From the NCBI GenBank assembly GCA_012295275.1, contig CM022672.1, forward strand, positions 20,680,894 through 20,744,893: a stretch of DNA of 64,000 nucleotides, written 5' to 3'. The notes under the pieces were generated by a model. The model worked only from the letters and a program-made list of their open reading frames with translations. It was not told where the DNA came from and made no database searches. The position numbers and the translations under genes were made by a program. Source of the DNA: Chrysomallon squamiferum. Its lineage: Eukaryota; Mollusca; Gastropoda; Neomphalida; Peltospiridae. The first letter of the stretch is position 1, and the number at the start of each line of letters is the position of its first letter. Positions 15,701 to 59,727 of the stretch are shown one piece after another.

Positions 15701-17813
15701 ACAAAACTGCTAAATGATTTGAAATATAAAATTTAAAAAATCTTTATTGAAATACAATTAAGCATTGTTTTAACTAATACAAAAACTTTCTTATAATATC
15801 TTTTTATGTCCCCTAAAAAGGTTGTTATTTTGTTATTTTTCATGATTATAAAACTGCAGAATAATTCTAAATGAAATCTAAAATTAAAAAATCTTCTTTG
15901 ATATAAAATTATGCATGGTTTTAACTAATATAAAAGCTTTCTTAGACTGTCTATTTTTGTCTTCTCAGAAGATTATTATTTTATTACTTCTGATAGTAAT
16001 AAAAATCATCTGATGAAGGTCGCAAACCAAATGTAGCCTCAAATCTGTTAGCCAGAGATGTAAATGTTGGCCTGTCATTTGGGTTTCCTGACCAGCATTC
16101 TTGCATCATTTTGTGGTGTCTGTGAATAAGAAAAAATCTTGATAGAACTACCAAAAATAATATTTCTCATAACAAGTTGAAAAAGAAAAAAAAGAGAGAA
16201 ATAAGATAAATAGAAAAAAAACAAAAACAATCTAATTAATACTTTCTGAATTAAACCCTTCTATTCACTGATATTAGTGTGACAAATTTTCTTTTTTTCT
16301 TAATTATTTTGGCTGTATTATAATCCTGTATTATGGCAAAGCTATCTGGACTTCAAATATGTCAGCTAGAATGAAAGAAAAATTTTTAATTTTAATTTTA
16401 AAATTAAACATTTTCAATTTCCAAAATGGTAATATGCTTATTTCTAATACACAATATTTTATATTCATATTTATTGTGTTTTTTGTACATGTAATTAATA
16501 ATATATTTTTATAAAATATACTTACATATCCTCACAGAATTCAGGTCGGCTAAGTCGGTATCCACTTTTCAGTTTATCTGCAATGTCACGACTTCGAATG
16601 TTGGGGTAGGGAACTTGTCCTGTTAAATTTCAGAATGTATCATTGAGAAACAACAAAAGTTAGAACAAAATGAAGAATTAATAAATATCAAAAGAAAATA
16701 ATAAATAAGCAATAGTTATTTTCAGCATTTGATAATTTTCCATTTTATCTCATTAAAAAAAAAAAAAAAATTTTTTGATATATAAATTTTTAATTATATG
16801 AGTCATAATCTTCAAATAATGAATGTCAGATCACAAAAATAATTTTCCAAAACAAAGACAAAAACTTTTTAAAAGTTATATATCCAAATAATGAACAGTT
16901 CAATGAAGAATTTTACACCACTAGCTGAAGCTGCTTACATGTTTATATATTGGATTTATAAATTTATAAACTGCAATTAAAGTAAAGACTAACCAAGACT
17001 AAATATTTCCCAAAGAACGATGCCATAAGACCACACATCACTCTTTTCATTGGCATTCTTCAGCGTTTGTAGACATTCTGGAGCAGTCCACTTGACAGGA
17101 ATACGATCCTGAAACAAAGTTATAAAACAACATGCAAATTTTTGTGGTGAAATTTAAAAAAAAAAAAATGTTTTTTAATATATATGTTACTAATCATGGA
17201 AATTATTTACTATAAATGTTAGAAAGGTAATTTTGTTTTAAAACATATATTAAAAAATAATTCCATTTAGGAAACTAATTTTCCCTTTAACTGATTTAGA
17301 AATCATATCCACTTCATATCATCATCAGCTTCTTATCACTTGATGTATTGGAATTCTACACTAAGAGATGTTAAATCTAATTACTCCTTTTGAATTGTCA
17401 TCATCTTCTCTGTCTCCACGTTGAGGTCCAAATCCAGTAACTTTAGCTTGGAGAATGAATGTCAGGAGCACATTTCTTGCTGCCAGTTTCCTGTGTACAA
17501 TCTACATAATGCACAGTAACAGCAAATCAGCTTCATATTTCTAAAATATTCTGAAATATTATCTACACCCTGTTCACTAACATTTAAAAAAACAAAGATA
17601 GTCAAGAATAGCTGAATAAAAAAAAAATGAAAAAATATTTTGGTAATGTATGGATCAAAGATTAATTTAGTCTGATAAGATGTTTTAGTTTTGCAGTATA
17701 TGATTGGAAAATACCAAAGTAAATGATTGTATTTATTATAAAAGTGAGAATACAGAAAACTGGCTTAAAAGATATGGAGTTTGGAATTGAATGTGGAATT
17801 GATTTCATGATAT

Positions 17814-59727: not shown

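What the first reader, a model, noticed from the sequence alone, without database searches (positions are those of the whole stretch)
15984..59727. Uneven divergence between receptor copies: variable N-terminal modules on a conserved body
Comparing copies A and B by hand, exon 3 (EMI-like) differs at 9 of 34 residues with 11 amino-acid-changing and only 2 silent base differences. Exon 5 (EGF) differs at 9 of 37 and exon 4 at 5 of 31. By contrast exon 7 and kinase exon 19 are identical in protein (exon 19 has one silent change), exon 9 differs at about 5% and the FN3 exon at 3 of 88. Excess replacement change focused between conserved cysteines is the signature of diversifying selection on a binding surface, as in recognition-receptor arrays. 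Immune or allorecognition use is only an inference.
Basis: partly seen in the sequence, partly recalled or inferred. Interest (0 to 1): 0.85.

Follow-up and report, generated by a model that had tools for sequence, protein, structure and literature searches.

The report
Snail receptor array with dead kinases
Two neighbouring copies of a snail cell-surface receptor gene differ about five times more often in their outermost modules than in the rest of the outside part, and every relative that has the kinase region lacks its two catalytic aspartates, so these receptors are predicted to bind varied ligands and would need a partner kinase to signal.

Summary
The uneven divergence is real; the proposed cause is only partly supported. 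Copies A (59727-44888) and B (30413-15984), minus strand, have 21 exons each. Exons 2-5 and 8 differ at 42 of 200 residues, exons 6, 7, 9-13 at 28 of 632, with equal silent divergence (0.120 v 0.109): within the ectodomain neither mutation rate nor conversion from a distant paralogue explains it. But pooled dN/dS is 0.75-1.02, not above 1; exon 3 gives 1.5-1.8, not significant. Positions invariant in relatives are spared (1 of 45 replaced); the others reach 1.3-1.4 (p 0.04-0.08, exons chosen post hoc): a kept scaffold with freely or weakly diversified positions. The contrast with the kinase is partly regional. Paralogue pairs in other snails show the excess in 4 of 9 cases, the reverse in 1. 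Not noted in the finding: the kinase lacks the HRD and DFG aspartates in A and in 31 of 31 gastropod relatives with that region, so this is a family of predicted receptor pseudokinases, labelled in databases as other receptors. Copy B carries a 2-nt frameshift in its kinase. Immune or allorecognition use remains conjecture.

The parts
44888..59727 (-). Copy A: receptor gene, 21 exons, intact 1226-aa frame
   Evidence: Exon models with splice borders and open frame
15984..30413 (-). Copy B: receptor gene, 21 exons, frame broken in exon 15
   Evidence: 2-nt insertion
2915..2982 (-). Exon 1 (signal peptide) of a third unit whose body lies outside the window; its 23 residues equal copy A's
   Evidence: tblastn; direct repeat D8
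59660..59727 (-). A exon 1, signal peptide
57934..58002 (-). A exon 2, first half of Cys-rich N-terminal module (3 of 23 residues differ from B)
57521..57624 (-). A exon 3, second half of Cys-rich module (9 of 34 differ)
56504..56599 (-). A exon 4, EGF-like (5 of 32 differ)
56029..56142 (-). A exon 5, EGF-like by cysteine pattern (9 of 38 differ)
54471..55384 (-). A exons 6-7, conserved (4 of 149 differ)
53837..54056 (-). A exon 8 (16 of 73 differ)
53951..54010 (-). A codons 315-334: densest replacement cluster; mostly loop in a weak model (pLDDT about 60)
50316..53497 (-). A exons 9-13, conserved body of likely beta-sandwiches, FN3 in exon 13 (below Pfam cut-off)
49034..49212 (-). A exon 14, transmembrane segment
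   Evidence: hydrophobic stretch read from sequence
44888..48448 (-). A exons 15-21, juxtamembrane YGSM and tyrosine-kinase-like domain
46379..46495 (-). A exon 18: HRD read as HRK (K1078), DFG read as GFG (G1096)
28544..28612 (-). B exon 2 (C31R)
28077..28180 (-). B exon 3
27421..27516 (-). B exon 4
26910..27023 (-). B exon 5
24584..24803 (-). B exon 8
24698..24757 (-). B codons 315-334: replacement cluster
19241..19441 (-). B exon 15 with a 2-nt insertion in a short AC run (19300-19305) that shifts the kinase frame
17385..17501 (-). B exon 18: HRK and GFG
9514..11312 (-). Decayed relic of another receptor copy (pieces of FN3 and kinase exons 16, 18, 19, 20), HKK-type catalytic loop as in Gigantopelta
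38591..40388 (-). The matching relic in the next unit (pieces of FN3 and kinase exons 16, 19, 20)

Best explanation
The window holds two tandem copies of a gastropod receptor gene whose kinase domain has lost the HRD and DFG aspartates and is predicted to be catalytically dead, while the outer modules (exons 2-5 and 8) change amino acids at about the neutral rate on a conserved scaffold, likely because the copies are free to bind different ligands. Shown: copy number and structure, even silent divergence across the ectodomain, fivefold more replacement in exons 2-5 and 8, sparing of positions invariant in relatives, loss of both aspartates in every relative with that region. Inferred: the variable positions form a ligand surface; the receptor signals by pairing with an active tyrosine kinase that phosphorylates it, with the juxtamembrane YxxM tyrosine recruiting PI3K, as in ErbB3; unequal crossing-over and conversion keep body and kinase alike while the outer modules drift or are diversified apart.
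For: Exons 2-5+8 v exons 6, 7, 9-13: dN 0.121 v 0.023, dS 0.120 v 0.109. Joint ML omega 1.02 v 0.19 (exon 1 counted with the rest), two omegas v one p = 6e-14. In exons 2-5+8, 1 of 45 positions invariant in the other members is replaced (omega 0.09) against 41 of 155 variable ones (omega 1.31); the contrast is clear in exons 2-5 (0 of 29 v 26 of 98, p = 0.001), not in exon 8 alone (1 of 16 v 15 of 57, p = 0.17). Changes arose on both copies: exon 8, 8 A-derived and 5 B-derived of 16; exons 2-5, 4 A-derived and 11 B-derived of 26, the rest undecided or settled by Haliotis only. The HRD Asp is Lys (23) or Arg (8) and the DFG Asp is Gly in 31 of 31 members with the region, 35 members examined, and in A; Fer (two), Abl and DDR2 controls keep both Asp. 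Kinase exons 15-21 are under purifying selection (omega 0.28). YxxM in 23 of the 31. Several members lie on one contig in four other species, judged by equal contig length: Gigantopelta 5, Haliotis asinina 7, H. cracherodii 5, H. rufescens 4. Excess in outer modules recurs in 4 of 9 within-species pairs.
Against: The excess is absent in 4 and reversed in 1 of those 9 pairs (H. asinina P0007~P0012, ratio 0.55, p = 0.04); the 3 pairs with the distant P0013 show none (0.87-0.96). In the deep comparison exons 2, 3 and 8 are only slightly faster than the body (mean rates 1.14-1.26 v 0.86-1.23; p = 0.01 for exons 2-5+8 v 6-13). Copy B has a frameshift, so part of its divergence could be decay. No expression, ligand or partner is known. 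Contigs of the relatives are chromosome-sized, so clustering there is not shown. The structural model is weak (mean pLDDT 62.9). YxxM is absent in 8 of 31.
Confidence: 0.55

Rival explanations
1. True diversifying (positive) selection on a binding surface: a subset of positions in exons 2-5 and 8 is driven to change.
For: Exon 3 omega 1.75 and exon 8 1.32, both not significant; positions variable in Gigantopelta, exons 2-5+8, 1.60 (p = 0.023), exon 8 1.94 (p = 0.017); variable positions over all members 1.31-1.41 (p 0.04-0.08); cluster at codons 315-334, family-wise p = 0.02 at the ectodomain silent rate with a 20-codon window.
Against: The exons were picked as divergent and many classes were tried. 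The cluster p is 0.04, 0.06, 0.02, 0.19 and 0.61 for windows of 10, 15, 20, 25 and 30 codons, and with 20 codons rises to 0.09 at rate 0.12 and 0.88 at the local intron rate 0.17. Positions classed by site rate give 1.34 (p = 0.14). Pooled omega 0.75-1.02.
Confidence: 0.25
2. Loss of constraint: copy B is a dying or N-terminally dispensable copy, and the outer exons simply decay.
For: Frameshift in B exon 15; C31R loses a common cysteine; 11 B-derived against 4 A-derived changes in exons 2-5, binomial p = 0.12; exons 16-21 also lean to B, 4 against 2 of 9.
Against: Invariant positions are spared (1 of 45 replaced); exon 8 changes lean to the intact copy A (8 against 5); B's exons downstream of the frameshift are not clearly accelerated; ectodomain body omega 0.19-0.22.
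Confidence: 0.15
3. Regional effect: the 5' part of the repeat is older or mutates faster, and the 3' part was homogenised by conversion or unequal crossing-over.
For: Introns 1, 3 and 5 differ by 26-40% as aligned, introns 14-20 by 5-18%, the 3' flank by 3.5-8% (sliding view); silent divergence in the kinase is half that of the ectodomain (p = 0.014); Haliotis pairs are mosaics, e.g. P0007~P0012 90-100% identical up to residue 540 and 42-85% after it.
Against: Within the ectodomain silent divergence is even (15 of 138 v 43 of 425 sites, p = 0.87), and exons 6-7, lying between the fast exons 5 and 8, are conserved in protein.
Confidence: 0.05

Closest known systems
ErbB3/HER3, EphA10 and EphB6 (vertebrate receptor pseudokinases)
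   Same: Single-pass receptor with a kinase fold lacking catalytic Asp; EphA10 has HRG and GFG (PMC7586955, passages); ErbB3 signals as heterodimer with ErbB2 (PMC11245391, start of abstract in the listing). The YxxM-PI3K link of ErbB3 is recalled.
   Different: Different ectodomain; Lys or Arg, not Gly, Ser or Asn, at the HRD Asp; beta3 Lys and catalytic-loop Asn mostly kept; tandem array; gastropod lineage.
Tie/Tek receptors (database name angiopoietin-1 receptor-like for P0028)
   Same: EGF-like modules followed by FN3-type sandwiches and a tyrosine-kinase fold; Tie2 FN3 structures are among the Foldseek hits.
   Different: Tie kinases are active and have Ig domains (recalled); among the 60 chains shown per search the kinase part is closest to EGFR, JAK-family, Eph, FGFR, CSF1R and Kit chains, Tie is not shown.
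MEGF10/PEAR1/Draper-type scavenger receptors (architecture recalled)
   Same: N-terminal Cys-rich module then EGF-like modules; PF23301 EGF_PEAR1L hits one relative.
   Different: Two EGF-like modules only; no EMI profile match; kinase-like cytoplasmic part.
Lineage-specific recognition-receptor arrays such as allorecognition or immune clusters (recalled)
   Same: Tandem copies, variable outer modules, conserved body, relics.
   Different: No function, polymorphism or expression evidence; omega not above 1.

Membership tests
Receptor tyrosine kinases (active) | Tyrosine-kinase fold behind a single transmembrane segment | tested here: met
   PF07714 E = 5e-69, residues 947-1207; hydrophobic exon 14 read from sequence
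Receptor tyrosine kinases (active) | HRD catalytic Asp and DFG metal-binding Asp | tested here: not met
   HRK and GFG in A; Lys/Arg and Gly in 31 of 31 relatives with the region; 4 of 4 controls keep Asp
Receptor pseudokinases | Kinase fold lacking canonical catalytic residues, kept by purifying selection | tested here: met
Receptor pseudokinases | No phosphotransfer activity | not testable with these tools
   needs biochemistry
ErbB3-like signalling | YxxM docking tyrosines | tested here: inconclusive
   one juxtamembrane YxxM in 23 of 31 members; phosphorylation unknown
EMI-domain proteins | Match to the Pfam EMI profile | tested here: not met
   0 of 4 N-terminal fragments at E up to 10
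EGF-like domain proteins | Match to an EGF profile above cut-off | tested here: met
   exon 4 fragment of A, PF00008 22.2 bits against 21.5; P0007 and P0015 fragments pass PF07974, P0001's does not pass. Full-length A scored 16.1, below the cut-off. Exon 5 by cysteine pattern only.
Fibronectin type III proteins | Match to PF00041 above cut-off | tested here: inconclusive
   A 19.6 bits against 25; 18 of 18 relatives match at E up to 1, best 2.9e-7
Diversifying recognition-receptor array | dN/dS above 1 in the binding module | tested here: not met
   0.75-1.02 pooled; 1.3-1.4 at variable positions, p 0.04-0.08, post hoc
Diversifying recognition-receptor array | High population polymorphism in the binding module | not testable with these tools
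   no resequencing data

The most novel reading that the evidence does not exclude
Gastropods carry a repertoire of tandemly arrayed receptor pseudokinases, many diversifying recognisers with dead kinases that all report through one shared active kinase and PI3K: a self/non-self or immune sensing system built from receptor tyrosine kinases.
Probability: 0.2. Interest if true: 0.85.

Novelty: new variant of a known kind. Interest (0 to 1): 0.52.

Why it matters
The receptor pseudokinases I know of are mostly single genes studied in vertebrates (recalled). A multi-copy family in several snail genera, with the same two catalytic residues lost in every member that has the region and with outer modules changing independently of the body, would be a natural experiment in how dead receptors are kept and diversified. 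It also questions database labels (fibroblast growth factor receptor, angiopoietin-1 receptor-like, ephrin type-A receptor 5-like) that suggest active kinases of other families.

Tried and rejected
Conversion from a distant paralogue as cause of the fast exons: disfavoured, silent divergence there is not raised; exchange with an equally young copy outside the window is not excluded. Mutation-rate gradient as sole cause: disfavoured within the ectodomain, accepted in part for the kinase. EMI assignment: no profile support. Domain reading of exons 6-12 from structure: the model is weak (mean pLDDT 62.9) and the Foldseek hits shown are mostly chains of FN3/Ig-type domains with TM to the query below 0.2, so only 'likely beta-sandwiches' is claimed. 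A search with the N-terminal part of P0005 found only the five Gigantopelta proteins. Alignments of the far 5' flank and parts of introns 1 and 3 are unreliable (p 0.4-0.6). DNA of other snails, needed for dN/dS over more copies, is not in the collections on hand. Paper searches for an account of this family found none: (listings, at most 20 rows each). Passages were read in PMC4883820, PMC8662651 and PMC7586955 and in the vent-snail genome paper PMC7736800, whose main text has no 'kinase'. The scaly-foot snail genome paper PMC7142155 was seen in a listing only.

Rows dropped before counts: P0013 and P0015 were left out of the invariant/variable classes as too distant, and truncated members lack some positions; P0005, P0016, P0017, P0018 have no kinase region for the motif count. 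One search printed 22 pair rows, A~B included; the 9 quoted exclude A~B, nine Gigantopelta pairs lacking exons 2-4, and three pairs with P0013. The kinase search listed 120 of 1548 proteins, so more distant gastropod members may exist; P0015 of Lottia, for one, is not among the 120.

Full report
Gene models. Both copies lie on the minus strand and have 21 exons with GT/AG borders. Copy A (59727-44888) encodes 1226 residues without a break; copy B (30413-15984) has two extra bases in exon 15 that shift the frame at the start of the kinase domain. A third unit begins at 2982 with an exon 1 whose 23 residues equal A's. The repeat period is about 27-29 kb. Each unit also holds a decayed relic of another receptor copy (11312-9514 and 40388-38591).

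Origin. The nearest proteins are five uncharacterised proteins of Gigantopelta aegis (66-70% identity), then Haliotis species (38-44%) and Lottia (33%). A second search with the kinase part of P0007 added 17 proteins of Haliotis, Nucella, Babylonia and Littorina at 43-63% identity; in the 120 of 1548 rows shown these are followed by general tyrosine kinases at 35% or less. The window is therefore from a gastropod, probably related to Gigantopelta (inference). The N-terminal part of P0005 alone found only Gigantopelta proteins.

The observation. Exons 2-5 and 8 differ at 42 of 200 residues, exons 6, 7 and 9-13 at 28 of 632 (ratio 4.7, p = 2e-11). dN is 0.121 against 0.023, dS 0.120 against 0.109. 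Fourfold sites agree: 6 of 62 against 23 of 262, exon 1 included in the latter. A codon model with one neutral rate for the ectodomain gives omega 1.02 and 0.19, and two omegas beat one with 2dL = 56.4. So selection differs between modules.

Is it positive selection? Not shown. Omega is 0.89 (counting) or 0.75 (ML) for exons 2-5, and 1.01, 0.90 or 1.02 for exons 2-5+8. Exon 3 is 1.75 by counting (p = 0.37) and 1.54-1.62 by ML (p = 0.20-0.52); exon 8 is 1.32 (p = 0.36) and 1.03-1.47 (p = 0.90-0.54). Using other snails to class positions independently of A and B, invariant positions of exons 2-5+8 are almost untouched (1 of 45) and variable ones give 1.31 (ML, p = 0.08) to 1.41 (counting, one-sided p = 0.04). 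With the Gigantopelta sequences alone as yardstick the values are 1.60 (p = 0.023) and, for exon 8, 1.94 (p = 0.017); but classing by site rate gives 1.34 (p = 0.14), and in exons 2-5 the class made by separate invariance in the two genera shows no contrast (0.94 v 1.08). Codons 315-334 hold the densest cluster (11 of 20 codons replaced). With a 20-codon window its family-wise p is 0.02, 0.09 or 0.88 at neutral rates 0.104, 0.12 or 0.17, the last close to that of the flanking introns; at the lowest rate, windows of 10, 15, 25 and 30 codons give 0.04, 0.06, 0.19 and 0.61. These exons were singled out because they differ, so all p-values are optimistic.

Decay? Against it: positions invariant in relatives are spared; in exon 8 more changes are A-derived (8) than B-derived (5). 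For it: exons 2-5 lean to B (11 v 4, p = 0.12), exons 16-21 lean to B (4 v 2 of 9), and B lost cysteine 31.

Regional pattern. As aligned, introns 1, 3 and 5 differ by 26-40%, introns 2, 4 and 6-13 by 8-20%, introns 14-20 by 5-18%, and the 3' flank by 8% then 3.5% (sliding view). Silent divergence in the kinase (0.047) is half that of the ectodomain (0.112); exons 15-21 against exons 1, 6, 7, 9-13, p = 0.014. The contrast of outer modules with the kinase is thus partly age or homogenisation.

Replication. Of 9 within-species paralogue pairs with exons 2-5 present (Gigantopelta 1, H. asinina 3, H. rufescens 1, H. cracherodii 1, H. rubra 3), 4 show a significant excess in the outer exons (ratios 2.18, 1.75, 1.73, 2.44), 4 none (1.10, 1.04, 1.12, 1.43), 1 the reverse (0.55); exon 8 is missing from the two H. 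rubra pairs with P0018, and three further pairs with the distant P0013 show none (0.87-0.96). Exon 8 alone is significantly above the body in 6 of 10 Gigantopelta pairs and in 1 of 6 Haliotis pairs (P0013 pairs left out). The A~B ratio of 4.7 is the highest. Haliotis pairs are mosaics with parts of different ages (all). Long-term rates of exons 2, 3 and 8 are only modestly higher (1.14-1.26 against 0.86-1.23 for single body exons).

The kinase. The HRD Asp is Lys in A and Lys (23) or Arg (8) in 31 of 31 relatives with the region; the DFG Asp is Gly in A and in all 31; the beta3 Lys, catalytic-loop Asn and APE are mostly kept; the controls Fer (two), Abl and DDR2 keep HRD and DFG. EphA10, a recognised pseudokinase, also has GFG (PMC7586955, passages). 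Exons 15-21 are conserved between A and B (omega 0.28). A juxtamembrane YxxM is present in 23 of the 31; that YxxM binds PI3K p85 is recalled. Database names (FGF receptor, angiopoietin-1 receptor-like, ephrin type-A receptor 5-like) do not fit a dead kinase of this architecture. Ten paper searches showed no description in their listings.

Mechanism. The best-supported reading is a gastropod set of ligand-binding receptor pseudokinases: outer modules free to vary on a kept scaffold, a conserved sandwich body, and a dead kinase that would act as docking and dimerisation domain for an active partner. The ligand, partner and role in immunity or self-recognition are conjecture.

Noticed in passing
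19300-19305: Two-base insertion in a short AC run of copy B exon 15 shifts the kinase frame; real or assembly error cannot be told without reads.
   Followed up: partly
53951-54010 and 24698-24757: The exon 8 loop comes in two types that cross species: A resembles Gigantopelta P0004/P0005 (PN..), B resembles P0001/P0002 (PY....TH), although A and B are close at silent sites: convergence, short conversion or chance.
   Followed up: no
9514-11312 and 38591-40388: Decayed receptor pieces; where read, the catalytic loop (HKK) and EEDENSKG stretch look like Gigantopelta's genes rather than A/B, hinting at an older paralogue lineage in the array.
   Followed up: partly
3543-3652 and 30905-31036: Inverted copies of the exon-1 block stand close upstream of exon 1 of two units; the one at 3543 has a stop at codon 3 (read).
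   Followed up: no
11900-14700 and 40960-43800: Noncoding stretch downstream of the genes mostly 93-99% identical between units, more alike than most introns: recent conversion or hidden function.
   Followed up: no
18084-18860 and 47200-47880: Array of 29-nt tandem repeats in intron 16 of both copies.
   Followed up: no
P0007/P0012 and P0014/P0016 (Haliotis proteins): Mosaic paralogues: N-terminal and C-terminal parts of clearly different identity, suggesting shuffling of ectodomains and kinases.
   Followed up: partly
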